64,000 nucleotides of DNA from the NCBI RefSeq assembly GCF_001687325.1, contig NZ_LZRD01000002.1, forward strand, positions 310,001 through 374,000. Reading direction: 5' to 3'. This stretch comes from Streptomyces sp. PTY087I2 (GTDB lineage Bacteria > Actinomycetota > Actinomycetes > Streptomycetales > Streptomycetaceae). The notes beneath the pieces are model-generated. The model was given only the letters and a program-made list of their open reading frames with translations, did no database searches and was not told the DNA's origin. The position numbers and the translations under genes were made by a program. Positions 39,903 through 63,368 of the stretch are shown piece by piece. The first letter of the stretch is position 1, and each line of letters begins with the position of its first letter.

Positions 39903-41144
39903 GTGACCGGCGCTGACTACCTGCTTCCGCTCCGCACGAAACTGCGCTCGATGCGTACCGAGTCCTTCGGGGCCGATCCGGCCGGAGCGCGGATGGAGCG
40001 CATCCGCCGCTCGCCCCATTTCGTCGACGGAGCGTTCCAGAATCCGGTGGGGGCCCGCATCAGGCCCTCCGGGTCCACCGTCGAATTCGCCAAGACCTAT
40101 TTCCAGAAGGAGCAGCGGGCCCTGAGGACGCCGAACGGCGCCGTGCCCGTGCACCCCACCACTCTCGCCGATCTGGCCGCACCGCCCGTCACCGGGCTCC
40201 GGCTGACCTGGATGGGCCATTCCAGCGTGCTGGCGGAGATCGACGGCCGACGGATCCTGTTCGACCCGGTCTGGGGCGAGCGCTGTTCCCCGTTCCCGTT
40301 CGCCGGGCCGAAGCGGCTGCACCCCACCCCGCTGTCCCTGGCGGCGCTCGGACCCGTCGACGTCGTCGTGATCTCCCACGACCACTACGACCACCTCGAC
40401 CTGCCGACGATCCGTGCCCTGGCCGGCACCGACACGGCCTTCGTCGTGCCGCTCGGTGTCGGAGCCCATCTGGAGCGCTGGGGTGTGCCCGTCGCCCGGA
40501 TGCACGAGCTCGACTGGAACGAGACCGCGACGGTTGCCGGAATCAGGCTCACCGCCACCCCCGCACGCCACTTCTGCGGGCGCGGGCTGCGCAACGGGCA
40601 GCACACCCTCTGGGCGTCCTGGGCCGTCGCGGGCCCGGAGCACCGGATCTACCACAGCGGGGACACCGGCTATTTCCCCGGCTTCCGGGACATCGGCGCC
40701 GAGCACGGTCCCTTCGACGCCACCATGATCCAGATCGGCGCGTACTCGGAGTACTGGCCCAAGAACCACACGGACTATACGCCGATGCCTGGGGCGTGGC
40801 CAGACATTCACATGACGCCCGCGCAGGGGGTCCAGGCCCATCTTGACCTGCAGGGAGGCGCTCCGGCCGGTGTGATGCTGCCGATCCACTGGGCCACCTT
40901 CAACCTGGCGCCGCATCCGTGGGCGGAGCCGGGGGAGTGGACGAAGGACGCGGCCGAGGAGGCCGGCCAGACGGTGGCGTTTCCCTGTCCCGGTGAGCCG
41001 TTCGAGCCCGCGGGCAAGCTGCCCGCGGATGCTTGGTGGCGCGGGGTGTCCCAGCCGATCGCTCGTCCGTGGCGCCGGCCGAAGCAGGCGTCGACTCCTG
41101 TCGATGCGTCCGAGCGTGATCTAGACCTGGCGGGTGATCGGTGA
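39903..41144 (+). CDS. MBL-fold metallohydrolase (NAPE-PLD/UlaG-like)
   Basis: A 413-residue cytoplasmic metallo-beta-lactamase-fold enzyme. The metal motif HDHYDH covers residues 159-164; further ligands lie in TPARHFCGRGL and YHSGDTGYFPGF. WMGHSSVLAEIDGRRILFDPVW and GAYSEYW fit the branch that includes NAPE-phospholipase D and UlaG, which cleave phosphodiester or lactone bonds; the substrate is unknown. The last 124 codons (from about 40769) recur as diverged copies at 58050 and, as a remnant, at 59839. GTG 39903 follows AGGAG. The stop overlaps the next GTG (GTGA). Confidence 0.9.
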   Translation: MTGADYLLPLRTKLRSMRTESFGADPAGARMERIRRSPHFVDGAFQNPVGARIRPSGSTVEFAKTYFQKEQRALRTPNGAVPVHPTTLADLAAPPVTGLRLTWMGHSSVLAEIDGRRILFDPVWGERCSPFPFAGPKRLHPTPLSLAALGPVDVVVISHDHYDHLDLPTIRALAGTDTAFVVPLGVGAHLERWGVPVARMHELDWNETATVAGIRLTATPARHFCGRGLRNGQHTLWASWAVAGPEHRIYHSGDTGYFPGFRDIGAEHGPFDATMIQIGAYSEYWPKNHTDYTPMPGAWPDIHMTPAQGVQAHLDLQGGAPAGVMLPIHWATFNLAPHPWAEPGEWTKDAAEEAGQTVAFPCPGEPFEPAGKLPADAWWRGVSQPIARPWRRPKQASTPVDASERDLDLAGDR

Positions 41145-41883: not shown

Positions 41884-42720
41884 GTCCTTCCAGTTCGGAG
41901 TCGACTCTCGGGTGAGCCTGCGGCTCATCAGGTCGATCATCGCGAGGCGGATCATCGCTTCGGAGCGGTGGGGGTGGGTTTCGTAGTCGCGGGCGAGCCG
42001 GCGGTGGTACATGAGCCAGCCGAAGGTCCGCTCGACGACCTAGCGCCGCGGGATCACCTTGAAGCCTTTTTGGGCGGGGTCTCGGCGGGTGACTTCGACG
42101 TCGATGCCCAGGCGGGCGCCGTGCTCGACGACCTTGGTGCGGTAGCCGGTGTCGGCCCAGGCTTTGGTGATGCGGGGGTGGCCTGCGGGGATGTCCGAGA
42201 GCAGGCGGATGCCGCCGGCGTTGTCGGAGACGCTGGCGGCGGTGCCCAGCACGGTCAGGAGGAGGCCAAGTGTGTCGACGCCGATGTGACGTTTGCGTCC
42301 TGCGATCTTCTTGCCCGCGTCGATGCCCTGGCCGACTGCGGGCACGTTTGCTGAGGTCTTGATGCTCTGGGCGTCCAGGACGCAAGCGCTCGGCTCGGCG
42401 TTGCCGCCTTCGGCCTTTCGGACCAGGCGCCGCAGGAGGCCGTTGAGCTGGTCGAAGACCTCGTCTTTCTGCCAGGCGGCGAAGTAGCCGTAAACCGTCT
42501 CCCATGGGGCGAAGTCGTGCGGCAGATACCGCCAGGGAATCCCGGTCCGGTCGACATAGAGGATGGCGTCCATGATCCGGCGCAGATCGTGCTCGGGCGG
42601 CCGTCCGATGGCCAGGCCCTTCCCTCTTCGCTCGGCCCGCCAGGCCGTCAGAGTCGGTTCCAGCAGTTTTCAACGGGCATCGGACAGGTCGCTCGGATGC
42701 GGTCGCTGTCGACGAAGCAT
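41878..42720 (-). pseudogene. IS5-family transposase, inactivated by two Trp-to-stop mutations
   Basis: Reading from ATG 42720 (MLRRQRPHPSDLSDAR) to TAG 41878 gives 281 codons of an IS5-type DDE transposase (IPWRYLPHDFAPWETVYGYF, LDAQSIKTSANV, WADTGYRTKVVEHGARLGID, VVERTFGWLMYHRRLARDYE). Two in-frame stops interrupt it: TGA at 42672-42670, where relatives read DARWKLLEP, and TAG at 42042-42040, where relatives read RRWVVERTFGW. Both are single-base changes of TGG. No clear terminal inverted repeats or target duplication could be picked out by eye, so the element is old. Confidence 0.85.
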
Positions 42721-48048: not shown

Positions 48049-48536
48049 ATGCTTGGCGCCGCCCGACGAAGGTGTCGTGTCCATTTCGTCCGCGACGTCT
48101 TCGCCGTCATCCCGAAGGGCTCGGCGGAGATGGTCGCCGCGACGATCCGCACGGTCTTCGCCCAGCCCACCGCGGACGCGGTCCGCACCCAGCTCAACAC
48201 CGCCGCCGACATGCTCGACCGACAGTTCGCCGAGGTCAGAGAGATGCTGTTGGAGGCCAAGGAGGGCGTGACCGCGTTCGCGGACTTCCCCCACCAGCAC
48301 TGGAAGAAGATCCAGTCCACGAACCCGCTCGAGCGGCTGAACCGGAAGATCAAACGCCGCACCGACGTCGTCCAGGTCTTCCCGGACCCGACCGCAGTCC
48401 TACGACTCGCGACTGCGGTCCTCACCGAACTTTACGAGAGTGGATTGCCTTCCCCCGCCGCTACCTCTCCACCGAAAACATGGACGCCCTCTACCGCGAC
48501 AACACGATCGTCCTACCCGCCGCATCAAACGACTGA
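48049..48536 (+). pseudogene. IS256-family transposase, C-terminal fragment, frameshifted
   Basis: The text RCRVHFVRDVFAVIPKGSAE, TIRTVFAQPTADAV, FADFPHQHWKKIQSTNPLER and LNRKIKRRTDVVQVFPDP is the C-terminal part of a mutator/IS256 transposase. The reading frame then shifts at about 48430 and the end is found one frame over as WIAFPRRYLSTENMDALYRD to a stop at 48536. The N-terminal half, with most of the catalytic domain, is missing. It is a dead remnant within the island. Confidence 0.85.
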
Positions 48537-48608: not shown

Positions 48609-48995
48609 CTACACGTCTCCTGTCGATGCGATACCGATGTCGCCGCCAGCCGCTATGGACCGGCCGCCGGCTGCTGTCGCGCCGCCTGGTGCTGCGGGCG
48701 TTGCCGTCGGTATAGCCGGAGGGACTGCGGGGGCAGCGCCGTCCCCTGTTGTGGCGATGCCGATGTTGCCTCCGGCGGCGATCGATCGTTCTCCGGTGGC
48801 GCTCACGGACGGCGATCTGCTGGGCGTCAACGCGAAGTGGGCGTACAGGGCCAGGCCGAGACCGATGAGCCCGGCAGCACCGCCACCGACGCTGGCCCAC
48901 GGATCTGCTGCGTCGACGTCGATGGTTGCGCCTATGACCAATGCCACTGCACCCACCCCGCACAGTCCAATACCTGCATACATCAGTGCCTTCAT
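48609..48995 (-). CDS. Two-helix membrane protein with two copies of a 16-residue glycine-rich motif
   Basis: A 128-residue protein. Residues 3-25 and 33-56 are hydrophobic helices (YAGIGLCGVGAVALVIGATI; GGAAGLIGLGLALYAHFAL), so the N terminus is in the membrane. The remainder is a tail with RSIAAGGNIGIATTGD at 70-85 and RSIAAGGDIGIASTGD at 112-127, the last but one residue of the protein, joined by an alanine/proline linker. The large NTPase encoded just upstream on the same strand has RSVAAGGDIGVVVTGD near its N terminus. Sharing of such a motif by a membrane protein and an NTPase suggests homotypic assembly, with this protein as the effector. ATG 48995 follows GAGG; the gap to the NTPase stop is 108 bp. 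Confidence 0.75.
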   Translation of the reverse strand: MKALMYAGIGLCGVGAVALVIGATIDVDAADPWASVGGGAAGLIGLGLALYAHFALTPSRSPSVSATGERSIAAGGNIGIATTGDGAAPAVPPAIPTATPAAPGGATAAGGRSIAAGGDIGIASTGDV

Positions 48996-49103: not shown

Positions 49104-52100
49104 CTAAGGCATGTCGGCAAAGGTGGCCGCAGCAGCCTTCGACTCGACCAACACCATTCGTACGGCCGACTGTAGGGCCTGGGGTGCCGTTCGAAGGACG
49201 GCATGGATGGAGTCGTGCCAGGGGGCGAGGCTGAGCGCTTCTATTGCGGCTGCGCGGCCTCGGGCGCTGTCACCCGATCCTTCAGCGATGGCGGCTTTCA
49301 GGCAGCCCAGCCGACTCCTGGTCCGGCCCTCTGCGGCCAAGGCGTTTGAGATCACAGAATCGAGCGCACCGGTGAGTTGACCAGCGTAAGCGTTCTCGCC
49401 GTGCTGGCGGGCTGCCGCGGAGATCGCGCACAACGCTCGCACCTGGTCGTAGGAGTTGGGCAGGGCATGGGCGGCGGCAGCAGCTTCAGCATACTGCTGC
49501 CTTTCTATAGCGAGCTCAACGGTGGACAGAAGCGCCCAGTTCTGCTGTTCGTGGTGGCTGATGTCGGCGGCTACGTTGATAGCCGCGCCATAGTCCCCGC
49601 GCTGAGCGGTCCAGTAGGTGATGTTGCCAAGGACCCGGCTGTGCTCAAGAGGGTCGGCCAGGCTTCTTGCCAGATCGAGGCCCTTCGTTGCATGTCCGAA
49701 TGCGGCCATTGCTTCGGCGACTGACGCTGTGGCCTCGTCCTTGGTGAAGGTGTCGGGCAGTGCGAGTGTCAGAGCTCGTGCCTGGTCATGCTGCCCTGTC
49801 CAGGCGAGTGCTGCTGCCGCTGAGGCGACGGCTTGCTGATGATTGTGTTCTTCGGTGGCCAGTTCGACAAGGAAGGCAGCCTCAGCCGTCAGGACGTCGT
49901 CGCTGTCCTCCTCGTCTGGATCGCGTAGGGGCGGGGCCGGCGGCTTTGCGGCCCTGTCGTCCGGGGTGACGGCCAGGGCCTGCAGGAGCTTGTCCGCGAT
50001 GTGCTGGCTGACAGCCGCGGCGAGCTTGGAGCGGCCTTGGCGGATCAGCACCCTTACGCGTTCGTACAGCATGTGGTCGGGCCAGGTGGCAGCGGTCAAG
50101 ATGTCAGTCAGAGTGCGCGCTTGACGGGCCAGAGCTGAGTGCTGCGAAAGGTGGCCCGTCCTAGTCAGGGACTGCGCGGCGAGGGCAAGCGCTTCAGCTT
50201 GCTTCGCCGAGTCGGGCAGGGCCTGGATCGCCTCAAGCGCTCTGGACCCCGAGCCAGCCCGCGCCCATGTCGCGGCCACCGGAGCAAGAGCGCGGGACGG
50301 GCGCGGGGACAGAGCAAAGTCTTTCATTAGAATGAGGGCCTTCTCATCCTCACCGCGAGCGACCAAGCATTTGGCCACGGCGGCTAGGATCTCCGCCCTG
50401 ATCCAGGTGTGCTGGGCGGTGGCGGCCAGAGCGATCGCGGAATCGTCCTGACCGGAATCGGTAAGAGCCTTCGCCATTGCGACAAGGGCAGCTTTGCTGT
50501 GATCGATTGAGACAACCGGTTGGGAAGAGCTGCTGCTTTCGAGTTTGCGCAGCCTCTGTAGCAGCTGGCTGGCGAGCTCCAGCGAACCGGCTCGGGCCGC
50601 GGCGGCTGCGACCCACCCCAGAGCTTGAGCCCGCCGGTATGGGTCCAGGATCGTTCGGGCGATACTCGCGCCGTCTTGGGGCCTCCCGCACCTGGCCGCG
50701 CCGCAGGCCGCTTTCAACAGGGTCGTGGCCTGTCTGTTCGGGTCGCTTATCTCTTGGGCAACCTCAATGGCGAGATCCGGTGCACCCGACTCAGCCAAGA
50801 TCACCGACAGCGTGCCGACATGATGAGTATCTCCCAGCGCGGTGCCCTGTCGGGTGGCGGCGGAGGCTTCACGGGCAAGCTCTTCTGCTTGCTGGCGGCT
50901 TCCGGCGCGCATGTGGGCATCTGCGAGGTGTGCCAGTGCCCTGCTCCGGCTACGGGGAAGACTCAAGGTATGCGCCAGTCGGGCTGCAGGGCCAAGGCCG
51001 TCTGCTGCCTGTGCCAGGGCGGCGACGACGTCCGCGACGGCCTCTTCCCGCTCGTTATGGGATTTGAGGGGCTGTAGCAGTTCGATGGCGTCCTCGTGCC
51101 GACTGGCGAGGGCCAGGGCATGTGCTGCCATGGTGAGGCCGTGGGCGCGCAGGTTGTCAGCGGCTACTTGGTCGGCGAGTGCTGCGGATTCGCGAGCAAG
51201 CTCGACGACGGTGCTGCGGTCCGTGGCCGACTCGGCCAGAGCAGTTGCGACCCGTGCCAGGGACGTCATCTGGGCGTACGGGTCCGACAGCGACCGACAC
51301 AGTTCGGCTGCTCGCTGATGTTCGCCTGCCTGGGCCAGTGCCGCAGTACTCGCTGCCAGGGCATTGTCCGTTGCTTCCGAGAGTGCTTCCTCGGCTACCG
51401 GGACGGCGTCCGAAGACTGCCCGTTTTTTGCCATGGCTATAGCGGTGTTCACCAGCAGGTGGGCTCGTAGGTCGGTGTCGCCGACCGTTCGAGCCGCCGT
51501 CAGGGCATCTGGATAGCGACCTTCCAAGATCATGGTCTGCACTGCTGAGACAGGCACGATGTCGGGTATCGATGAGGCGGCCGCATGGGCGATTGCCTCT
51601 CCCGCGTGTCGTTGCCCAGACTGCAGCGCGGCAAGAGCAGCTTGCGCCAAAACCCGGCCACGGACCTCCCGGGGCTCCAGTGTCCGCGCCATGTCGATCG
51701 CCCGCTCGGGGGAGTTGGCAAGGGCTAGCATGGTCGCGGCGCACCCCACCGCTTCCTCGCTGCGCGGTCTGGCCACGGTGCCTGCCAGTCTTGCCGCCTC
51801 GTCGGCCACCTCTGCTGCTAGCGGTAGATCACCAACGGCAGCCAAGGCCCGTACCACGCCCGTGAATGCCTGCACTCGCGCCAACTCGTCTTGGCGGGCA
51901 CGGGCCAGACTGATCGCGCGCCGCACATGTCCCAAGCTCGCCCAAACCGAGATCAGCGCGTTCGGAATGCACTCACTGCGGGAACGCAGAGCGTCACGTC
52001 GGACAGCGAGCAGGAAGGCGTCACTGACATCCGCCGCATCGGAGGCGCCGGAGGCCACCAGGCCGTCGAATGCAGCAGAGAGTTCTGACAGCGCGTCCAG

Positions 52101-53387
52101 ATCGGAGCCAGAGCGCTGCCACAACCGGCTGTGGCGGTGAGCATCCCCAGCCAGCCGAACGAGCCGCTCAGTGTCCGCCTGCGTGCGCAGTAGCTGGCTA
52201 TATCCACGCAGCAGGTATTCCGGTGTGTGGGGCGGCCAGTGCTGCTCATGGAAGGCGTCCGCCCACTCATACAGTCGCTTCCGGTGCCCTGCCAACTCCT
52301 CGTCAGTCAGCAGATCAAGAGCGCTCCGCTGGATCTCCTCGTGGGCCAACACGTAGACGCCCGCAGCCCGGCGACCAGCCTCGCGGGAAGTCCAATGAGG
52401 TGACCGAAACCGGAAGGCGCGCCCGGTGACCGTGCTCAACTCCAACTCCACCAAACGCGAACGTGTACCCGCCAGCGTGGCCAAGTCCGCAGCCGTCAAT
52501 CCGCCGCCGGCCGCCGTCACCAACCCGAGAAGCGCACGTGCCAGGCCACCTGCATTGAGCATGCGCAGCAGACTGTCCTCGGCCTCCCGGCGCACTGCAG
52601 CGGCAAATGACGAAGGAGTCAACCACCGGTCGATAAGGCTTTCCCGCAGTGGGTGGGATACCGGCACATCGTCCGGGACGGGAGGGTGCGGCCGCCCAGC
52701 CACAATCACGCGCATACCGTGCGAAGGCGAGCGCGGCAGTAGAGCGGCAATGCTGTGGCTGTCGGGTCCGGCCAGCACCCCACGGTCCTCATCCAGACCG
52801 TCGACCACGAGCACCAGACGTCGACCACGCATCTTGCAGACTGCAGCGGTACGTGCCATCGCGGCGAGCAGGCTCTCCTCACGCGTGTGCTCGGTAACTG
52901 CCGGCTCCTCCTCGCCCAGCAGCGCGTAGAACTGGCGGTGCACCACCTCGCAAAAGGCGGTGCGGTCGTTCTGCCGGTTCAAGCGCGAGGTGATGAAGAA
53001 CGACACGACGTCGACTTCAGGAGGCGGTGCAAGGACGAATGCTGCCATCAAAGCAGTCTTTCCTGCCCATGCGGGCGCCAGCCACCGCCAATACGCGTGC
53101 ACCCCTGTGTCTACGTCCCCGGGCGCAACGCTGAACGCTGCCATAGCCGCCAGTTCGTCGTGCCGCCCATGAAATTCGGTAGCGGCGAGGGATTCGACCT
53201 GGTAGAGGTAATCGGAACTGGCCACGCGCGGTGGTGCGGCCACCTGATAGACGTTATTGCCATCACCAGTCACGACGACGCCGATGTCCCCGCCAGCCGC
53301 CACCGAGCGAACACCGGTCGCCACAGGGGACCCGCCGACAGGCAGTGCTTCCTGCCGACTCGGACGGCTCCACCATCTACCGACCAC
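49104..53387 (-). CDS. NLR/STAND-like NTPase with long helical-repeat C terminus and N-terminal shared motif
   Basis: A protein of about 1427 residues. Residues 27-42 are RSVAAGGDIGVVVTGD, the motif found twice in the neighbouring membrane protein, followed by GDGNNVYQVA. Then comes a P-loop NTPase: APAWAGKTAL (104-113, a Walker A whose early glycines are replaced), VDVVSFFITSRLNRQNDRTA, and Walker B LVLVVDGLDED (191-201). From about 420 to the end there are many alanine-rich helical pairs of roughly 30-40 residues, TPR-like (LARVATALAESA, AAMARTAAV-type helices, ALTLALPDTFTKDEATASVA), the likely sensor. GTG 53387 has GGGGAG nine bases upstream; GTG 53324 is an alternative. No nuclease or TIR domain is present, so the effector is probably encoded separately. 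Confidence 0.82.
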   Translation of the reverse strand: MVGRWWSRPSRQEALPVGGSPVATGVRSVAAGGDIGVVVTGDGNNVYQVAAPPRVASSDYLYQVESLAATEFHGRHDELAAMAAFSVAPGDVDTGVHAYWRWLAPAWAGKTALMAAFVLAPPPEVDVVSFFITSRLNRQNDRTAFCEVVHRQFYALLGEEEPAVTEHTREESLLAAMARTAAVCKMRGRRLVLVVDGLDEDRGVLAGPDSHSIAALLPRSPSHGMRVIVAGRPHPPVPDDVPVSHPLRESLIDRWLTPSSFAAAVRREAEDSLLRMLNAGGLARALLGLVTAAGGGLTAADLATLAGTRSRLVELELSTVTGRAFRFRSPHWTSREAGRRAAGVYVLAHEEIQRSALDLLTDEELAGHRKRLYEWADAFHEQHWPPHTPEYLLRGYSQLLRTQADTERLVRLAGDAHRHSRLWQRSGSDLDALSELSAAFDGLVASGASDAADVSDAFLLAVRRDALRSRSECIPNALISVWASLGHVRRAISLARARQDELARVQAFTGVVRALAAVGDLPLAAEVADEAARLAGTVARPRSEEAVGCAATMLALANSPERAIDMARTLEPREVRGRVLAQAALAALQSGQRHAGEAIAHAAASSIPDIVPVSAVQTMILEGRYPDALTAARTVGDTDLRAHLLVNTAIAMAKNGQSSDAVPVAEEALSEATDNALAASTAALAQAGEHQRAAELCRSLSDPYAQMTSLARVATALAESATDRSTVVELARESAALADQVAADNLRAHGLTMAAHALALASRHEDAIELLQPLKSHNEREEAVADVVAALAQAADGLGPAARLAHTLSLPRSRSRALAHLADAHMRAGSRQQAEELAREASAATRQGTALGDTHHVGTLSVILAESGAPDLAIEVAQEISDPNRQATTLLKAACGAARCGRPQDGASIARTILDPYRRAQALGWVAAAAARAGSLELASQLLQRLRKLESSSSSQPVVSIDHSKAALVAMAKALTDSGQDDSAIALAATAQHTWIRAEILAAVAKCLVARGEDEKALILMKDFALSPRPSRALAPVAATWARAGSGSRALEAIQALPDSAKQAEALALAAQSLTRTGHLSQHSALARQARTLTDILTAATWPDHMLYERVRVLIRQGRSKLAAAVSQHIADKLLQALAVTPDDRAAKPPAPPLRDPDEEDSDDVLTAEAAFLVELATEEHNHQQAVASAAAALAWTGQHDQARALTLALPDTFTKDEATASVAEAMAAFGHATKGLDLARSLADPLEHSRVLGNITYWTAQRGDYGAAINVAADISHHEQQNWALLSTVELAIERQQYAEAAAAAHALPNSYDQVRALCAISAAARQHGENAYAGQLTGALDSVISNALAAEGRTRSRLGCLKAAIAEGSGDSARGRAAAIEALSLAPWHDSIHAVLRTAPQALQSAVRMVLVESKAAAATFADMP

Positions 53388-54039
53388 GAGTGACCACTCC
53401 CCTCCCCGCCTTGCACCCTGTCTGCTGGCCGCATCGATGCCGACGTAGCGAGCCCTGGCGTGACGTCGCTGACGATGGCCAACGGGACCTGCCGGATGAA
53501 GGACCGGGTGGCCCGTTAGCTTACAGAAGCGATGGGTGCCGTATGGCATGCGTAGGTCGGAGCCGCCCTGGACCGATGCTGAAGTCGCCTCAGGGGTGAC
53601 GGGCCGCCACGCCACAAGCCGATCTCCTCGGTGAGGGAGGAGTTGTGTCTCCGGGTGAGACCGAGCACGACGTGGTGGGACACCTCGCTGAGGTGGCGGT
53701 CACGGCGTACAGAGGGCCGGGGTACCGGCCAGTCTGCCAAGCCGCACTCGTCGGGCCAGGGGTGCCTCGGTACGCAGGTTGCCGTCATTGGTGCGGACCG
53801 GCCAAGGAAGCCCGGTGACGTCATTCATGATCTGGCCACGGGCGCGATGGCACCCGCTAGCCTGCCCGCTCCGCGGGCTCTGCTCACGCACTCGGGGAAC
53901 CGTCACGGAAGTCCCACTTGCATCTGGGGTTGAGCTTTCCGGGCCGGAAGTCATCGCACATATGGCCGGGCTGCCCTTTGTTGTCATACCTCGCGCCTAG
54001 TCTGAGTCACGCGTGTAGGGCTCGGCGCAAGGGGGTTGT
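53388..54039. promoter_or_regulatory. 650-bp divergent region between two NLR-like genes
   Basis: It separates the minus-strand NTPase (start 53387) from the plus-strand nuclease/NB-ARC gene (start 54040), so it should hold both promoters. Short open frames (for example 53631-53933 plus) have no convincing features. I could not identify operator palindromes or reliable -10/-35 boxes by eye. Confidence 0.45.
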
Positions 54040-57000
54040 GTGGCGATCGATGGTGGGCGCGTTGCTGCTCGCGGGTTCCAGTATCAGTACCTGCGTACGG
54101 TAGAGGCTTTGTTGGCTGGCATGCAGCAGGGCGAAGCGACTGCTTGTCGTGTTGAGGGGCCCGGGAATGCGGTGTCTGCCCACCACGTGGATTCGGTCGA
54201 TTTCGATCTGGTCGATGACTCTGGTCGCTCGCTGCTTGCGGTGCAGGTGAAGAGCGCTGGTGCAGGACGGACCGTGAGGGCGCGCGAGGCTGTGTCGGTG
54301 CTGGTTCATCTGGTCACCGGCTTCGAAGCCGACCAGTACCGCTTGATCACGTCCGCTGTCCCGGACGAAGGGTGCCTGCATCTGAGTGAGTTGTTGAAGC
54401 GCCACGGTGGTGACGTTCCGCGTCTCAAGGTGGGGCTTCAGGAGCTTTTGGCACGGGCTCCGGCCGCTTGGGGCCTCTGCCAGGCGTTGTCCGCCGAGCA
54501 CTGGGAGCGCTTGGGACGTTCGGGCATTGAGTTCGATGTCCGCAGTGATGAGCAGTTGCGTGAGGAGCTCCACAATGCGCTGCGCTTGGAGCGCGAGAGG
54601 GCGGGGCGGGGGTTGTCCGGTCAGTCCGGCGGGCTCGTGCTGGGCTGTTTGGTGGCCGAAGTCATGCGTCGGGCGGCTGATCCCGGTCTGGCGCAGTGGG
54701 ATGTGAGTGATTTCCGCCGTTCAGTGCTGGTCGGTGATGAGGAACTGCGCGCGGCTCTGGGGCGGCAGGATCTGGGCATCGTGTTCGGGCAGGCGCCTCC
54801 GGTCCCGGAGGTGGACCGCACGCACCTCGTCGAGAAGGTAGGCGAGGTACTGCTGGTTGGGCACGATTTGGCGCAGGGTGTGCGGACGTGTGTCATCACG
54901 GGTCTGTCGGGTCTGGGTAAATCCAGTCTCGCGGCCGCGTACATCGCGGCTGAAGCTTTCCGCTATGACGCTGTGTTCTGGGTCGACGCCGAGAGCGAAG
55001 AGTCTTTGGCGGCGTCGTTCGTCCGGGTGCTGGCACACCTAACGGGTAGTGCCGAGCAAACGGAGGTGCGGGACCCACGGCTGGTCTGCGAGCGGGTTCA
55101 CGCCGAACTGCAGTCGCTACCCGGGCGTTGGCTCATGGTTCTTGACGACGCAAGCGCGTCCGTTGCCGGCGCATGGGTACCCCGGCGGGGGCACGGCCGG
55201 GTCATCGTGACGGCGCTGGGTGGTCACTGGCCGAGGGTGGATGGGCGCATCGATCTGGAACCGATGAGCCGCGAGGAAGCACTTGAGCTGCTGCAGCTGC
55301 GGCTGTCGGTCGGTGTACAGGAGGCTACCGAGCATGCGTCGGCACTGTCCCGGCTGGCGGACGTCTTGGAGAACTGGCCATTGGCGATCGAGGTGGCGTG
55401 TGGCTATCTGGTCAGCTGCGGGGTCGGCGTCGAGCGGATCGCTGCTTATACGGAGACTCTGGTGCACCGTGCTGCCGACGATGAACAGTCGGTGCCTGCC
55501 GGTTATCCGCGGACTCTGGCCGCAGCGGTCGAGCTGACCATGGAGCGCCTCATGAGCAGTGCGCAAGGACGTGGCCTGCAGCAACCGACTCTGGACACGG
55601 TGGCTGCGCTGTGCTGGCTCGCACCGCGCCGGGCGCCGGTGCATCTTGCTGCAGCATGCGCGTTCTACGAGCCCGAAAACATGCCGCCGTCTCCCGGATG
55701 GCTGGTCCTCGATGAGGCCCGGGTACCGATACGAGAGGTCATGCGCGAGCTGCTTAATGTCTCCCTCGTACGGTGGGACGAGCCGCTGCCATCCCGGCGC
55801 GAGCCGTTTCCCGGAAGCGATGACACCGTGTCGATGAACGCGGTCCTGCAGCAGATCATCCCCCGGTATCTGAGAATGACCGGGGCAGAGGTGACGGCCG
55901 CATTGTCGGTTCTGGCCTTCCACACAGACCGCTGGCTGCGTGGAGCTCTGCTGACCGGTCAGGCGGAGCGGAGCTGGGAACTGGCCCAGCACGCTACTAA
56001 CCTTGTTGGGCACATCCGCTCGGCAGGAACAGCGGATACGTTCACCGCTCTGCTCATGGGCAATCTTGCCGCGTTCCATCAGGCCCATGGCCAGTACGAG
56101 TCCGCGCAGGGGCTGCTGCAACTGGAACTCGAATGGCTGGTGCAAGCCGGCAACCCGGACCAAGGGATGGCCGCCCAGGCGCGCACGTCACTCGCCCACC
56201 TCGTTCAGCTACGCAACCAGGAGAGCGCCGCCGTTTGCATGGCCAGCTACCTGGGCCCTGTACTGGTCTATCTGCGTAGGCTTGACGGCCACCTGCACGA
56301 TAACGTCGCCGACCTGCCGGCCCAAGCGTCCCTGATCCTTGAGATGCAGTTGCGCAGAGGAGCCGACCCTCGGTTGGAGGAGCTGCTGAATGAGTTTCGT
56401 TCCCTTGCCGAGGGCCTCCCCCGACCCGATAGGGAGCAGAAGGCGCAGGACCTCCTGGCGATTGAGGATCTGATCCGGCAGGGAGAAGCCGAGCGCGCCG
56501 AGCGCGCCGCCGCCGAGGGCCTGGCGCGATCCGTCGATCCGTGGGCTTCGAGCACAGCCGACTTCAGACGCCTCTTGGTCGAGGCGCTGGTGCTGCAAGA
56601 CAGATGGGCCGAGGCTGATGCTGCCTTCACCGACTTCCTGCCTTATGCCGGTCCTCACACCCTCCACGGGTTTGCCGTGCACCACCTAGTGCACAACGTC
56701 GGCTGCCAGTGCGCATGGAAATGGGTGGTGACCGGGGAACAGCGTGCCGTGCAGTTGCTGGGACGACTGTTGAAAGAGACTCGCATCACCGACAATCCAG
56801 CGTACGAGACGGACAGCGACGAGGCCCGATTCATCCTTCTGCAGGCGGCCTACGACGGCTGGCGCGCCGTGCACGAGGACGCAAACGACGCGGCACCCCT
56901 TCAGTTGCTTTCCCGCCTGCGGGACAAGACGTTTACCGACCCACATGACCCCGGGAGTGTGTGGGAAAGGATCTTCCAGGGATTGATACCGCGGTTGTCG

Positions 57001-57741
57001 GCTGTTGCGGGCGAGACCACACACCGCCTCCAGCAGGAGGCCGGCGAAGCCGTGCTTAGCGAGTTCTCGCCGATGCTGCAGGCCGATGAGAACCTGCGCG
57101 CAGTGTACGAGGAGGCAGGCTGTTTCTCGGTGCTGTCCCTGTCTACGGACCCCGTCTACGGGTTCCTCGCTGGCCGCTCCACTGCGGACATCCTCCTTCC
57201 GGAAATTCAGAAGCTGTTGCCAGCGTCGAGGGCCTTGGTCCTCCTGCAGCCTCATCAGATGCTCGGCGCCACCTCGTCCGAGAGCGGTGAGTCAGTCGAG
57301 CTGCAGATCCACCGGGCCTGCGCCAAGGGGCTGCGTCGCCTGGTGGGGCCGCAGCCGACCATTCCCTCACTGGAGCACCTCACGCTCACTGTGGCGGGCC
57401 GAAGGCTGACCCTCGAGCATGACGATGGCACCGTCATTGCCCGCGCCAATGCGACGGCATCAGGCTGGTGGCGGCAGGCAGCCCGCGACCGTGGCAGCGC
57501 GCTCGTGCTGTATGGCTACGGCCTGGCTCTCCATGACTTGCCCGCGCACCGGCAACTCATGACGGCCCCTGCAGAGGTACACCGCCGAGTCGCCGAGGCG
57601 AGCGACAGCGGGTTGCTCGCCGCAGCCCTGGTCTCCGTGCGCCTACAACCTGGCCCGACCATTCCGAAGAACGCCGCAACGGCAGCCCGCAGACAGCCTT
57701 GGCGGTCTACCCGTGCTCGGCGGAAAGGGCGCCGCAGGTAG
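54040..57741 (+). CDS. NLR-like protein: PD-(D/E)XK-like nuclease domain, NB-ARC NTPase, helical repeats
   Basis: A 1233-residue protein. The N-terminal 200 residues begin AARGFQYQYLRTVEALLAGM and carry DSVDFDLVDD (D54, D56) and LLAVQVKS (Q69, K71), the layout of Cap4/Mrr-like PD-(D/E)XK endonucleases with a Q-x-K variant. The NB-ARC core has the P-loop GLSGLGKSS (about 288-296), the hydrophobic aspartate strand WLMVLDDAS (about 362-371), the sensor-like RVIVTALGGHW and GLPL-like motif WPLAIEVACGYL. From about 640 there are helical repeats. The design matches bacterial antiphage NLR/Avs-type proteins in which ligand sensing by the C terminus triggers DNA cutting. GTG 54040 follows AAGGGGG by 4 bases. 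A second function of the last 250 residues (LVLLQPHQMLG region) is not clear. Confidence 0.85.
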   Translation: MAIDGGRVAARGFQYQYLRTVEALLAGMQQGEATACRVEGPGNAVSAHHVDSVDFDLVDDSGRSLLAVQVKSAGAGRTVRAREAVSVLVHLVTGFEADQYRLITSAVPDEGCLHLSELLKRHGGDVPRLKVGLQELLARAPAAWGLCQALSAEHWERLGRSGIEFDVRSDEQLREELHNALRLERERAGRGLSGQSGGLVLGCLVAEVMRRAADPGLAQWDVSDFRRSVLVGDEELRAALGRQDLGIVFGQAPPVPEVDRTHLVEKVGEVLLVGHDLAQGVRTCVITGLSGLGKSSLAAAYIAAEAFRYDAVFWVDAESEESLAASFVRVLAHLTGSAEQTEVRDPRLVCERVHAELQSLPGRWLMVLDDASASVAGAWVPRRGHGRVIVTALGGHWPRVDGRIDLEPMSREEALELLQLRLSVGVQEATEHASALSRLADVLENWPLAIEVACGYLVSCGVGVERIAAYTETLVHRAADDEQSVPAGYPRTLAAAVELTMERLMSSAQGRGLQQPTLDTVAALCWLAPRRAPVHLAAACAFYEPENMPPSPGWLVLDEARVPIREVMRELLNVSLVRWDEPLPSRREPFPGSDDTVSMNAVLQQIIPRYLRMTGAEVTAALSVLAFHTDRWLRGALLTGQAERSWELAQHATNLVGHIRSAGTADTFTALLMGNLAAFHQAHGQYESAQGLLQLELEWLVQAGNPDQGMAAQARTSLAHLVQLRNQESAAVCMASYLGPVLVYLRRLDGHLHDNVADLPAQASLILEMQLRRGADPRLEELLNEFRSLAEGLPRPDREQKAQDLLAIEDLIRQGEAERAERAAAEGLARSVDPWASSTADFRRLLVEALVLQDRWAEADAAFTDFLPYAGPHTLHGFAVHHLVHNVGCQCAWKWVVTGEQRAVQLLGRLLKETRITDNPAYETDSDEARFILLQAAYDGWRAVHEDANDAAPLQLLSRLRDKTFTDPHDPGSVWERIFQGLIPRLSAVAGETTHRLQQEAGEAVLSEFSPMLQADENLRAVYEEAGCFSVLSLSTDPVYGFLAGRSTADILLPEIQKLLPASRALVLLQPHQMLGATSSESGESVELQIHRACAKGLRRLVGPQPTIPSLEHLTLTVAGRRLTLEHDDGTVIARANATASGWWRQAARDRGSALVLYGYGLALHDLPAHRQLMTAPAEVHRRVAEASDSGLLAAALVSVRLQPGPTIPKNAATAARRQPWRSTRARRKGRRR

Positions 57742-58049: not shown

Positions 58050-58416
58050 CACGGACTATACGCCGCGGCCGGGGGCGTGGCCAGACATTCACATGACGCC
58101 AGCTGAGGGGGTGCAGGCTCACCTTGACCTGCAAGGAGGTCAGCCGGGCGGTGTTCTGCTCCCGATCCACTGGGGCACGTTCAACCTGGCTCTGCACGCG
58201 TGGGCGGAGCCGCGGGAGTGGACGAAGTACGAGGCCGGTCAGGCGGTGGCGTTCCCTCGGCCTGGCGAGCCGTTCGAGGCTGCGGGGAAGCTGCCTGTGG
58301 AGCCGTGGTGGCGGGCTGTGTCCCATCCGATCACGCATCCGTGGCGTCGCCCCCGACCTACGGAGGTCGTTGCCGAGTCGCGCAGCGACGATCTCGATCT
58401 CACGGGCGAGCGGTGA
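58050..58416 (+). pseudogene. C-terminal fragment of the MBL hydrolase (second copy)
   Basis: From CACGGACTATAC at 58050 the sequence matches the last 124 codons of the gene at 39903, reading TDYTPRPGAWPDIHMTP and then to the stop at 58416. The catalytic HxHxDH part is missing; the frame upstream (open from GTG 57976) has unrelated residues. It could be translated as a 146-residue protein but cannot be an active hydrolase. It probably marks a recombination boundary of the accessory cassette to its left. Confidence 0.85.
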
Positions 58417-59838: not shown

Positions 59839-60196
59839 TTCCCGCGTCCGGGCGAGCCGTTCGAGCCTCGGGGAAGCTGCCAGAGAAGCCGTGGTGGCGG
59901 GCTGTGTCCCATCCGATCGCTCACCCGTGGCGTAGGCCCCAACCGGTCGAGGCTCCTGCCGAAGTCCCCAAGCGTGATCTCGACCTTGGGTGGTCGGTGA
60001 CGGCGAGCGAGGATGACCTCGATGGGATCGTGCGCCTACTGGCCCGTCTTCCGGGCGAGGAGCGCGACCGCTTGGTGCGTGCGCTGGACGGTGCGCCTCG
60101 CCGGGAGTGTTCGGCAGGTGCCCAGCAGTTCAGGCCCTTGCCGACGTTAGAGGGCCGCACCCAGTTGTTGTCCGAACACGCATCATGGGCAGCTGA
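59839..60196 (+). pseudogene. Decayed third copy of the MBL 3'-end / 66-residue module
   Basis: Recognisable pieces are PRPGEPFEPRG (frame of 59803), then after a frameshift SHPIAHPWRRPQPVEAPAEV and KRDLDLGW, then VTASEDDLDGIVRLLARLPG with DGAPRRE and QQFRPLPT. A two-base loss at the junction removes the hydrolase stop, fusing it in frame with the small gene, and a further one-base change garbles its last residues. It is not functional. It marks the right end of the HEAT-protein cassette. Confidence 0.8.
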
Positions 60197-61479: not shown

Positions 61480-63236
61480 TTACCACTCGTTGCTGTTGCC
61501 CTCGGCGATCCGCAGGATCTGGCTGGCGAGTCGCTGCACCACGTCGCTGTATCGCTCGCTGCCAAACTCGTCGGCCGCAGAGACCGCTGGGAACATCTGC
61601 TTGATGAGATCTGCGACCAACCCCGCAGGGAACCAATCCGGCAATTCCGAGATTCGCTGGAATGTCCGAGTTGCATCGGTTCCGTCACGGCTGAAGGTCT
61701 CACCCCACTGCCCCATCGCTTCGATCATCGCCGGCAGCAGGTCTGGGTTTCCCTCAAGTGCTGTCTCCAGGGTCTCTCGAACTCTCCGCCGTGGCTGGCA
61801 CCCGCAGTCCATGCAAGCAGCCGTCGTGCGTAATTGCTGTTGTCCGCCCAGGCAGTGGGAGCCTTCCAGTCTTCAGCCAGCAGGAGTTTCGTGGCTTCGG
61901 CGGCTGCCGCATCCTGCAGTTCCTCGCGACCCTGCTGTTTCGCGATGGTGCCGAGATGCTGGAGCAGAACAACCGAGGCAGCCAGAGGCGTCTGCTCGCT
62001 GGCCTGACGAATGAGGGCACGGTAGGTGGTCTCGTCGGCATTGCGGGCCACAGTCGCCGCACGCCGGGCCGTAACGTCTAGCCCCATCGCCGTCAGCGAT
62101 GGCACGGGGGGAAGAGCGTTCGCCAAAGGCAGCGCCTCGATCAGGCGTGCGTACAGCGCCGCGTCGTAGTCACGGTGCTTCACCCGGCCCCAGGGGCCTG
62201 CCGATTCCAGTAGTTCCCAGTGCTCCCGCACCGCACGCTGTTGGTCTGTTTCGACCGGTCCAGAGACGGCGAGGGTCGGCTCGGGCGGGGAGACTGTCCG
62301 GTCCCCTCGCCAGGCGGCGCTCAGGGCCGCTGAGGCGCGCTGCAGCTCGGCGACCGCGTCCGGCCATGCCTGGTCGTCCTCGGACGGCGGCCGTCCTGGC
62401 CATCGATCTGCTGCGGCAATCAGTTCTTCGACCCGTCGTTCCACCCAGTCGCACCACGGCCCGAGACTCTGGTCGGCGGCAGATACGGCGTGGAGCTCGG
62501 CAACGACCTCTACGGCCAAGGGTTCTAGTTCGGCCTGGCTCGCGGCGAGAGCTCCATTCAGCGCATCCTCGTAGGGCTTGGTCTCTGCCCTGGACGGCTC
62601 GACGGTCAGGCGGTCCCCATCCAGATCGAAGACGGGCATCGTCCTGTTCATGTGGAGACGCAATGCCTGCCAATCCTGAGCCGCTTGATGCGCGAGGCGA
62701 CGTCGCTGGCGACCGACGCTCACCATCTTCCCTACCGCCCGGGCCGCCGCCACGACCGTCGTCGCACTGGCCGTGGCGACGCTCAGCGGAAGCGGGTCGA
62801 AGGAGAGCACGGAGGCTTCCGCGACTTCATCGTTGTTCAGGTGCCACGACCGCTGAATCTGGTCGTGCTCGGCCAGTTGCGCCGCCTTCCACTCCTGCAG
62901 CATCTCCGGAGGGAACCGGGCGGCGTTTTCATCGATCTCATACGAGTGCTCGATGCATAGCAGGAGCAGGTTCTCCCCGCTGCGGTTCACCTCGTCTGAC
63001 ATGCCGGCGTTCCATCGGGGGCCACCCTCCCTGCGAGCGTGGATGTGCGCGACGCGGCTGTTGAGGGTCCGATCGCCGGTCTCGTTGTCCAACCGGAACA
63101 AGGGGCGCTGACAGTCCGGCTTGCCGCAGCGGAAAGCGGTTCCGTACAGCTGTTTCACTGTTGCGTCTGTCGGCGCGGGATGTTCTACCGGGCGACGATT
63201 CGGGTTCCCACCTGTCACCGAGGCATTGTGCCCCAT
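61480..63236 (-). pseudogene. HNH-endonuclease-domain protein, frameshifted near its 3' end
   Basis: Starting at ATG 63236 (GTG 63218 is an alternative), the N-terminal 125 residues form an HNH domain: CGKPDC (Cys37, Cys42), VAHIHARREGGPRW (His64), NLLLLCIEHSYEID (Asn89, His97). A possible hydrophobic segment follows (LSVATASATTVVAAARAVG, about 150-168) and then a long helical part. The frame ends at 61725, but the neighbouring frame continues VRETLETALEGNPDLLPAMI to a stop at 61480, so the gene is shifted once at about 61780-61795. It may be a real inactivation or a base-call error. The role is probably DNA cleavage in a defence setting. Confidence 0.7.
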
Positions 63237-63330
63237 GTGGCGACGGGCAGCGGCAACTTCCGCGCACCAAGCCCTTGGCTCGGTATGCAGACACGGCCAG
63301 CGTCTCACGTGCAGTTCATTGAGAGTGCGG

Positions 63331-63368
63331 CCTGGGGTGGGGCAGGCGGGTGCCTGCCCCACCCCAGG
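63331..63368 (-). terminator. Strong terminator between the unknown gene and the HNH gene
   Basis: A perfect 17-bp stem (63331-63347, starting CCTGGGGTGGGG, with 63352-63368) and a 4-base loop. It begins 8 bp after the stop codon at 63376, so the two minus-strand genes are separate transcription units. Confidence 0.82.

What the first reader, a model, noticed from the sequence alone, without database searches (positions are those of the whole stretch)
54040..57741. NLR-like protein joining a PD-(D/E)XK-type domain to NB-ARC
The N-terminal D-x-D ... Q-V-K pattern, a complete NB-ARC core and long helical repeats on one chain match the plan of antiphage STAND nucleases (Avs, bacterial NLRs), but with NB-ARC rather than NACHT. 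It is divergent from the motif-sharing NTPase, so two NLR-type systems stand back to back.
Basis: partly seen in the sequence, partly recalled or inferred. Interest (0 to 1): 0.68.

Follow-up and report, generated by a model that had tools for sequence, protein, structure and literature searches.

The report
Apaf-1-like bacterial immune receptor with nuclease
A Streptomyces-type bacterium carries one large protein that looks like a plant or animal cell-death receptor with a DNA-cutting domain on its front end; it most likely senses phage infection and then shreds DNA, an untested new variant of a known class of bacterial immune proteins.

Summary
Residues 1-257 model as a PD-(D/E)XK nuclease whose nearest solved relatives are the Cap4/DUF4297 clade: LmuA, Avs3, HerA-DUF4297 and Cap4 (best Z 16.1 to 13.8). 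Twenty-three relatives were found, all in actinomycete genera. No neighbour gene is shared by most loci, so it probably acts alone. At least five of the 23 loci lie near DISARM, Gabija, Wadjet or Cas3e/repeat-array genes. The faster-changing C-terminal half and patchy, sometimes broken copies fit a fast-turnover immune receptor. Best reading: a one-gene, Avs-like suicide nuclease built on an Apaf-1-type ATPase. By the models tested it is not an Avs, bNACHT or FxsT family member. Function is inferred, not shown. New variant of a known kind.

The parts
54040..57741 (+). whole gene, 1233 aa, single-chain nuclease-NB-ARC-TPR-C-terminal domain protein
   Evidence: 23 relatives in genome contigs
53925..54039 (+). 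115 bp upstream, conserved with L007 together with the gene; probable promoter/RBS
   Evidence: nucleotide match of 53925-57741 to S. violascens L007 at 84%, starting here and ending at the stop codon
54052..54684 (+). PD-(D/E)XK nuclease domain, aa 5-215, Cap4/DUF4297 clade
   Evidence: model of aa 1-257 pLDDT 83.9, pTM 0.82; Z 16.1 LmuA, 15.7 Avs3, 14.8 HerA-DUF4297, 13.8 Cap4; hhalign P 2.2e-12
54154..54156 (+). E39, predicted catalytic
   Evidence: invariant in 21 of 21; aligns with the E of Cap4-type proteins
54199..54201 (+). D54, predicted metal-binding aspartate of the PD motif
   Evidence: invariant in 21 of 21; D56 is D in 17 and E in 4
54244..54252 (+). Q69-V70-K71, the (D/E)XK position with Q
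   Evidence: Q69 and K71 invariant in 21 of 21; V70 invariant in the alignment
54826..55869 (+). NB-ARC (AP-ATPase) core and winged helix, aa 263-610
   Evidence: Pfam NB-ARC 26.6 bits, over gathering; Apaf-1 3sfz Z 25.1 over 440 residues
54901..54927 (+). P-loop GLSGLGKSS, aa 288-296
   Evidence: G288, S290, G291, G293, K294, S296 invariant in 21
55129..55149 (+). Walker B WLMVLDD, aa 364-370
   Evidence: D369 invariant in 21 of 21; 370 is D in 14, N in 7
55870..57084 (+). TPR-like helical repeats, aa 611-1015, probable sensor part 1
   Evidence: helices in model; Pfam TPR_12 weak, 0.0047 and below its cut-off; mean pairwise identity 0.380 vs 0.552 for the nuclease
57115..57648 (+). C-terminal alpha/beta domain, aa 1026-1203; present in 10 of 20 aligned proteins that can be judged (window included; L010 is cut by its contig); probable sensor part 2
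   Evidence: model strands and helices; alignments; tblastn finds it nowhere in the loci of the ten short members; no PDB relative by sequence at E below 0.35

Best explanation
A one-gene immune receptor. In the resting cell the protein is held closed by its ADP-bound NB-ARC core. A phage product, or a cell change caused by phage, is recognised by the TPR-like repeats and, in the long form, by the C-terminal alpha/beta domain. ADP-ATP exchange then opens the core and the proteins assemble into a ring or tetramer. This brings the N-terminal Cap4-type nuclease domains together as active dimers, which cut double-stranded DNA of phage and host, so the infected hypha dies or stops before phage are released. 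Shown by computation: the four-part architecture, the nuclease fold, invariant active-site residues, the Apaf-1/plant-type ATPase fold, purifying selection, faster change in the sensor half, and defence systems near several family members. Inferred from Avs3, Cap4 and Apaf-1: autoinhibition, oligomerisation, DNA cutting and abortive infection. The trigger is unknown.
For: Cap4-clade nuclease fold, best rows Z 13.8-16.1 against 8.2 or less for classical restriction enzymes such as EcoT38I and MspJI, and 21 of 21 conservation of E39, D54, Q69, K71. PADLOC LmuA model hit in 13 of 21 members at E up to 1, best 4.8e-8. Apaf-1 and NRC1 as nearest ATPases. dN/dS over the gene 0.16-0.26 against L007, L008, L009, L016 and 0.38 against L006. 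Sensor half diverges faster: C-terminal identity below nuclease identity in 45 of 45 pairs, TPR below in 44 of 45. Defence neighbours in 5 of 23 loci: DrmMI-DrmA-DrmB-DrmC 0.7 kb upstream in L021, GajA-GajB ending 89 nt upstream in L012, Cas3e with a repeat array in L017 and L022, JetC/JetD in L023. Patchy distribution (3 of 61 genomes, own included) and disrupted or decayed copies (L022, L028, L032). Avs3 mechanism (tetramer pairs the nucleases) read in passages of PMC11291478.
Against: No experiment. Trigger unknown. The defence neighbours come from 20 hand-picked proteins without a matched background; the neighbours in other loci were scanned only in bulk, and shared ones are largely transposases, metabolic or lanthipeptide genes. 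The window protein itself matches neither Pfam Cap4_nuclease nor PADLOC LmuA at E up to 1. Rows for the same nuclease families range down to Z 8 (LmuA 9ny5 8.0, DUF4297 8zir 7.6). Nuclease and ATPase-TPR parts were modelled separately, so no interdomain or oligomer model supports autoinhibition. The MHD histidine position appears to be Asn. A MalT-type regulator ATPase also scores Z 19.5.
Confidence: 0.75

Rival explanations
1. It guards against plasmids or other mobile DNA, or acts in developmental cell death of the mycelium, rather than phage. The mechanism (NB-ARC switch releasing a nuclease) is the same but the trigger is not phage.
For: One island also holds Wadjet-type genes (L023), which by recalled knowledge are anti-plasmid. 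Related conflict systems that include AP-ATPases are said to be preponderant in multicellular prokaryotes (abstract start and passages of PMC7159879).
Against: DISARM, Gabija and CRISPR-type neighbours are anti-phage systems (recalled knowledge). Patchy presence (3 of 61 genomes) argues against a core developmental role.
Confidence: 0.13
2. It is a STAND regulator (MalT, AfsR or FxsT-like) whose PD-(D/E)XK-like domain only binds DNA.
For: The NB-ARC part is closest to the FxSxx_TPR family among NCBIfam models (2.9e-36, aa 259-612); a maltose-system STAND structure (8bob) scores Z 19.5.
Against: The FxSxx_TPR score is 125 against a cut-off of 300 bits. E, D, Q and K of the active site are invariant in 21 of 21. 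No helix-turn-helix Pfam domain up to E 0.1. Most neighbours differ from locus to locus.
Confidence: 0.07
3. The window copy is a decaying or non-functional passenger of the island.
For: Decayed or disrupted copies exist elsewhere (L022, L028, L032). The island holds transposase remnants.
Against: Full-length open frame; dN/dS over the gene 0.38 against L006 and 0.16 against L007; catalytic and P-loop residues intact.
Confidence: 0.05

Closest known systems
Avs3 (AVAST type 3, PDB 8dgc)
   Same: N-terminal Cap4-clade nuclease (Z 15.7 over 218 residues), central STAND ATPase and long repeat sensor on one chain (the last two recalled and from passages)
   Different: No PADLOC Avs model among the 7 families matched by any of the 21 members at E up to 1; 1233 aa against 2028 in 8dgc_A; ATPase nearest to Apaf-1 and plant NB-ARC; adds a C-terminal alpha/beta domain; trigger unknown
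LmuA (Lamassu), Cap4 (CBASS), HerA-DUF4297, Hachiman nuclease
   Same: Same nuclease clade by fold (best Z 16.1, 13.8, 14.8, 13.8) and, for LmuA, by profile in 13 of 21 members
   Different: There the nuclease is driven by SMC-like proteins, SAVED second-messenger sensing, HerA ATPase or a helicase (partly recalled); here by a fused NB-ARC-TPR receptor
Apaf-1, CED-4 and plant NRC-type NLRs
   Same: NB-ARC plus winged helix fold (Apaf-1 Z 25.1 over 440 residues, NRC1 Z 24.3 over 321)
   Different: Effector is an enzyme on the same chain instead of a CARD or coiled coil; sensor is TPR-like plus another domain, not WD40 or LRR (recalled)
FxSxx-COOH system TPR protein (FxsT) and TIR-AP-ATPase-TPR proteins of VMAP systems
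   Same: Nearest NCBIfam model for the ATPase; AP-ATPase with TPR in actinobacteria (passages of PMC7159879)
   Different: Below the family cut-off; nuclease instead of TIR; no gene shared by most of the family's loci that could be a peptide-processing partner
bNACHT proteins
   Same: Tripartite effector, STAND switch, sensor plan (passages of PMC12169576)
   Different: NACHT model below cut-off here; NB-ARC above it

Membership tests
Cap4/DUF4297-clade PD-(D/E)XK nuclease (domain) | alpha-beta-beta-beta-alpha-beta core and nearest solved structures in this clade | tested here: met
Cap4/DUF4297-clade PD-(D/E)XK nuclease (domain) | E...D...QxK active-site residues | tested here: met
   E39, D54, Q69, K71 in 21 of 21; aligned with Cap4-type proteins
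Cap4/DUF4297-clade PD-(D/E)XK nuclease (domain) | Pfam PF14130 match | tested here: inconclusive
   8 of 21 members match at E up to 1, best 0.0037; the window protein itself does not
Cap4/DUF4297-clade PD-(D/E)XK nuclease (domain) | dsDNA cleavage | not testable with these tools
   needs biochemistry
NB-ARC / AP-ATPase class of STAND NTPases | Pfam NB-ARC over gathering score | tested here: met
   26.6 vs 23.5 bits
NB-ARC / AP-ATPase class of STAND NTPases | P-loop, Walker B, GLPL-like motif, winged helix (motif names recalled) | tested here: met
   P-loop residues, D369, W446-P447-L448-A449 invariant in 21; winged helix about aa 564-610 in the model
NB-ARC / AP-ATPase class of STAND NTPases | MHD motif at end of winged helix (motif recalled) | tested here: inconclusive
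   position appears to read M/V/I/L-N; N600 invariant in 21 of 21; placement inferred
Avs (AVAST) | match to PADLOC Avs protein models (their presence in PADLOC-DB is recalled) | tested here: not met
   only 7 PADLOC families matched by any of 21 members at E up to 1, none an Avs model
Avs (AVAST) | recognition of conserved phage proteins such as terminase | not testable with these tools
   needs phage assays
FxsT (NF040586) | score over NCBIfam cut-off | tested here: not met
   125.3 against 300 bits
bNACHT | Pfam NACHT over gathering score | tested here: not met
   14.4 against 26.7 bits

The most novel reading that the evidence does not exclude
A bacterial nuclease apoptosome: an Apaf-1/resistosome-type NB-ARC wheel that, on sensing phage through its TPR-like repeats and a dedicated C-terminal domain, clusters fused Cap4 nucleases, showing that the Apaf-1-type (not only NACHT or Avs-type) switch drives DNA-shredding immunity in multicellular bacteria.
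Probability: 0.4. Interest if true: 0.72.

Novelty: new variant of a known kind. Interest (0 to 1): 0.52.

Why it matters
It would join the DNA-shredding effector of Avs, Cap4 and Lamassu to the ATPase class that runs animal apoptosis and plant NLR immunity, on one chain, in bacteria with a multicellular habit. Because it appears to be a single gene with a mappable active site and two candidate sensor parts (long and short forms), it can be tested directly in a laboratory Streptomyces.

Tried and rejected
Whole-chain phmmer against PDB: nothing up to E 1. N-terminal profile against PDB sequences: only chance hits, so the relation to solved nucleases rests on fold and on profile comparison. Plasmid collection: one distant hit over aa 286-789, annotated fxsT; phage collection: none; viral contigs: none confirmed by tblastn. 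Search for the C-terminal domain in 81 genomes: own gene plus one fragment with an internal TGA in G024. Search for the ATPase-TPR profile in 41 genomes: three matches over 741 or more of 935 positions (own gene, G039, G044, each with the same nuclease); the other listed matches end by position 374 at 3e-40 or weaker, so no effector swap was seen. These genome searches score only part of the candidates.

Conserved neighbour gene: first tested with a simple gene caller that missed the family gene itself in six loci (L011, L013, L015, L018, L026, L027), so repeated with all open frames of 100 aa or more. Shared sets: an aldehyde dehydrogenase (named in L023) with a second gene resembling a regulator (L007) in L007, L016, L023, 0.4-5 kb away and on either side, read as a shared insertion site; a lanthipeptide-type set in L012 and L026; Cas3e in L017 and L022; transposases; the STAND gene of window and L006. 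None is shared by most loci.

Viral structure library: only generic AAA and repeat proteins. Prior art: DUF4297 with NB-ARC, and Cap4 nuclease with AP-ATPase, gave 0 papers each; in seven wider searches (lists capped in 43 and 98) no listed title or abstract start describes this fusion; PMC7159879 and PMC8195603 were read in passages only. The main Avs and bNACHT papers were not read, so absence from print is not claimed.
Full report
What is there. The open frame at 54040-57741 on the + strand encodes 1233 aa. The window is G000:C2:310001-374000 of an 8.16 Mb genome; the gene's closest relatives are Streptomyces. It lies in a stretch of lower G+C (0.63-0.69 per 2 kb from 40 kb on, against 0.69-0.76 before). 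S. violascens L007 has M at the same start codon. Nucleotide similarity to L007 covers 53925-57741, i.e. the gene and 115 bp upstream, and stops at the stop codon, which fits a one-gene unit.

The N-terminal domain. AlphaFold2 on an alignment of 21 sequences gives pLDDT 83.9, pTM 0.82 and the order helix, three strands, helix, strand. Foldseek's best hits are a Hachiman chain (2.2e-7), Avs3 (1.3e-6), Cap4 (8.6e-5) and LmuA (1.1e-4). On the DALI-like scale the best rows are LmuA 16.1 (217 aligned, rmsd 7.3), Avs3 15.7 (218, 3.5), HerA-DUF4297 14.8 (203, 5.2), Cap4 13.8 (189, 4.0) and Hachiman 13.8 (204, 4.4); other entries of LmuA and DUF4297 go down to 8.0 and 7.6, and classical restriction enzymes reach 8.2 or less. 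By sequence, PADLOC LmuA matches 13 of 21 full-length members at E up to 1 (best 4.8e-8) and Pfam Cap4_nuclease 8 of 21 N-terminal domains at E up to 1 (best 0.0037); the window protein itself is in neither set, its best nuclease match being PDDEXK_5 at 0.028, below cut-off. A profile comparison with ten actinobacterial proteins, nine found with the Pfam Cap4_nuclease model and one (L033) with the query's own profile, gives P 2.2e-12; without L033 5.7e-11; with five that I picked as closest to classical Cap4 6.7e-6. Controls: 20 of 20 column shuffles give P 0.14 to 1, the reversed profile 0.018, an unrelated domain 0.32. Two of the eleven proteins found with the Pfam model were left out: L037 because my script found no frame, L039 because its N-terminus looked atypical to me. 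E39, D54, Q69 and K71 align with the Cap4-type E, D, Q and K and are invariant in 21 of 21; D51 is D in 20 of 21; D56 is D in 17 and E in 4.

The ATPase and sensor. Pfam NB-ARC passes its gathering score, NACHT does not. The model of aa 245-1233 (pLDDT 82.1, pTM 0.71; the other four models 76.6-77.7) shows NB-ARC, winged helix, helical repeats to about aa 1024, an alpha/beta domain at about 1026-1203 and a low-confidence tail. Nearest structures: Apaf-1 Z 25.1 (440 aligned, rmsd 4.2), NRC1 NB-ARC Z 24.3 (321, 4.2), a STAND-TPR protein 6mfv Z 20.0 (571, 5.4) and a maltose-system STAND protein 8bob Z 19.5 (371, 4.5); ORC/Cdc6 ATPases reach about 13 and the NACHT protein NLRC4 12.9. Among NCBIfam models the FxSxx-COOH TPR family fits the ATPase best (2.9e-36) but at 125 of the required 300 bits.

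The family. A scan of genome contigs found 23 loci, 14 in Streptomyces and nine in other genera (Actinomadura, Actinoplanes, Glycomyces, Kitasatospora, Actinospica, Catenulispora, Protofrankia, Micromonospora twice), all actinomycetes by name. The scan used two N-terminal peptide patterns, so it is a lower bound and selects for the nuclease. Twenty plus the window were aligned; L006 (cut by a contig end, 95% identical), L022 (frame leaves the family after aa 214) and L028 (broken frame) were left out. Ten of the 21 have the C-terminal domain, ten lack it (also by tblastn of their whole loci), one (L010) is cut by its contig. L014 has a stretch between nuclease and ATPase that looks out of frame and may hold sequencing errors. 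In genome searches the full protein was found in 3 of 61 genomes, own included; the nuclease profile in 4 of 100, own included, one of them a decayed copy; and in 2 of 296 across the phylum, own included, the second (L033) being a related nuclease on a different protein with an ATP-binding motif by eye; in that last search only eight candidates per genome were scored. The ATPase-TPR profile found three long matches in 41 genomes, each with the same nuclease, then a wide gap to matches that end by position 374 of 935.

Selection. dN/dS over the gene is 0.38 against L006 (dS 0.06), 0.16 against L007 and 0.22-0.26 against L008, L009, L016; the C-terminal part against L006 gives 0.97, but on 86 codons. 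Mean pairwise identity among ten long members is 0.552 for the nuclease, 0.505 for the ATPase, 0.380 for the repeats and 0.374 for the C-terminal domain; the C-terminal value is below the nuclease value in 45 of 45 pairs.

Surroundings. No neighbour gene is shared by most loci, so the protein probably works alone. Smaller sharing exists: an aldehyde dehydrogenase and a regulator-like gene near L007, L016 and L023, a lanthipeptide-type set near L012 and L026, Cas3e in L017 and L022, and the divergent STAND gene of window and L006. I scanned 20 hand-picked neighbours with PADLOC: L021 has DrmMI, DrmA, DrmB, DrmC, the last ending 0.7 kb upstream on the same strand; L012 has GajA and GajB, ending 89 nt before the gene; L017 and L022 have Cas3e with repeat arrays of mostly 61-nt spacing; L023 has JetC and JetD 4.7-10 kb downstream. 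That is 5 of 23 loci. A bulk scan of 129 neighbours within 5 kb (120-1600 aa, without the L006 STAND gene) hit 328 PADLOC models at 1e-8, of which the 25 listed are mostly reverse transcriptase models, with homing endonuclease and mad models; some of the reverse transcriptases may be group II introns, as two proteins have the maturase domain. A control of 35 genes from window 1-39800 gave four models, one hit each: mad3, capH, HTH_VI, pVip; it is not a matched control. In the window itself the neighbours are a STAND_TPR gene (3.6e-100) and a protein matching HNH-type effectors (best model PDC-M68A, 5.6e-21).

Mechanism. By analogy with SeAvs3, where sensor binding drives tetramerisation and pairs the N-terminal nucleases (passages of PMC11291478), and with Apaf-1, I infer: sensing by repeats and C-terminal domain, nucleotide exchange, assembly, nuclease dimerisation, DNA destruction. 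Only the parts list, their conservation and context are shown.

Novelty. Effector-STAND-sensor immune proteins (PMC12169576 passages), a Cap4-type nuclease on a STAND protein (Avs3, PMC11291478 passages) and AP-ATPase-TPR proteins with TIR (PMC7159879 passages) are known. The combination of a Cap4-type nuclease with an NB-ARC core was not met in the papers I could search (and the seven wider searches), and I did not read the main Avs and bNACHT papers. I file it as a new variant of a known kind.

Noticed in passing
window 39903-41144, 58050-58346, 59839-60188: The 3' part of a beta-lactamase-fold hydrolase gene (39903-41144, Lactamase_B_2 1.7e-52) recurs as remnants 17 kb and 19 kb downstream (82% and 74% identity), so the STAND pair sits between repeated target-gene ends, as after successive element insertions.
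   Followed up: partly
window 49104-53615 (-) and 48609-48995 (-): A motif like RS(I/V)AAGGDIG...TGD occurs near the N-terminus of the divergent STAND protein and twice in a small neighbouring protein (by eye, with a hydrophobic stretch), reminiscent of shared amyloid-type signalling motifs (recalled, not tested).
   Followed up: no
window 61725-63362 (-): Protein whose aa 66-166 match PADLOC PDC-M68A (5.6e-21) and, weaker, endonuclease and SAVED-HNH effectors; no Pfam nuclease model hit. A further candidate defence gene.
   Followed up: partly
L033 (G277): Related nuclease domain at the start of a long open frame (887 aa) with a different, STAND-like ATPase by eye: another nuclease-ATPase architecture in the same genus.
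   Followed up: partly
L012 4973-8522 and L021 3-9259: The family member stands downstream, on the same strand, of a GajA-GajB pair (89 nt) and of a DrmMI-DrmA-DrmB-DrmC set (0.7 kb) respectively.
   Followed up: yes
L007 14149-17105, L016 4654-7694, L023 3273-6464: Three loci carry the same aldehyde dehydrogenase and regulator-like gene pair next to the family gene, once downstream and twice upstream, as if one chromosomal site were used repeatedly for insertion.
   Followed up: partly
window 42040-42573 and 48049-48500: Remnants of IS4/5-type and Mutator-family transposases lie on the left side of the STAND pair.
   Followed up: partly
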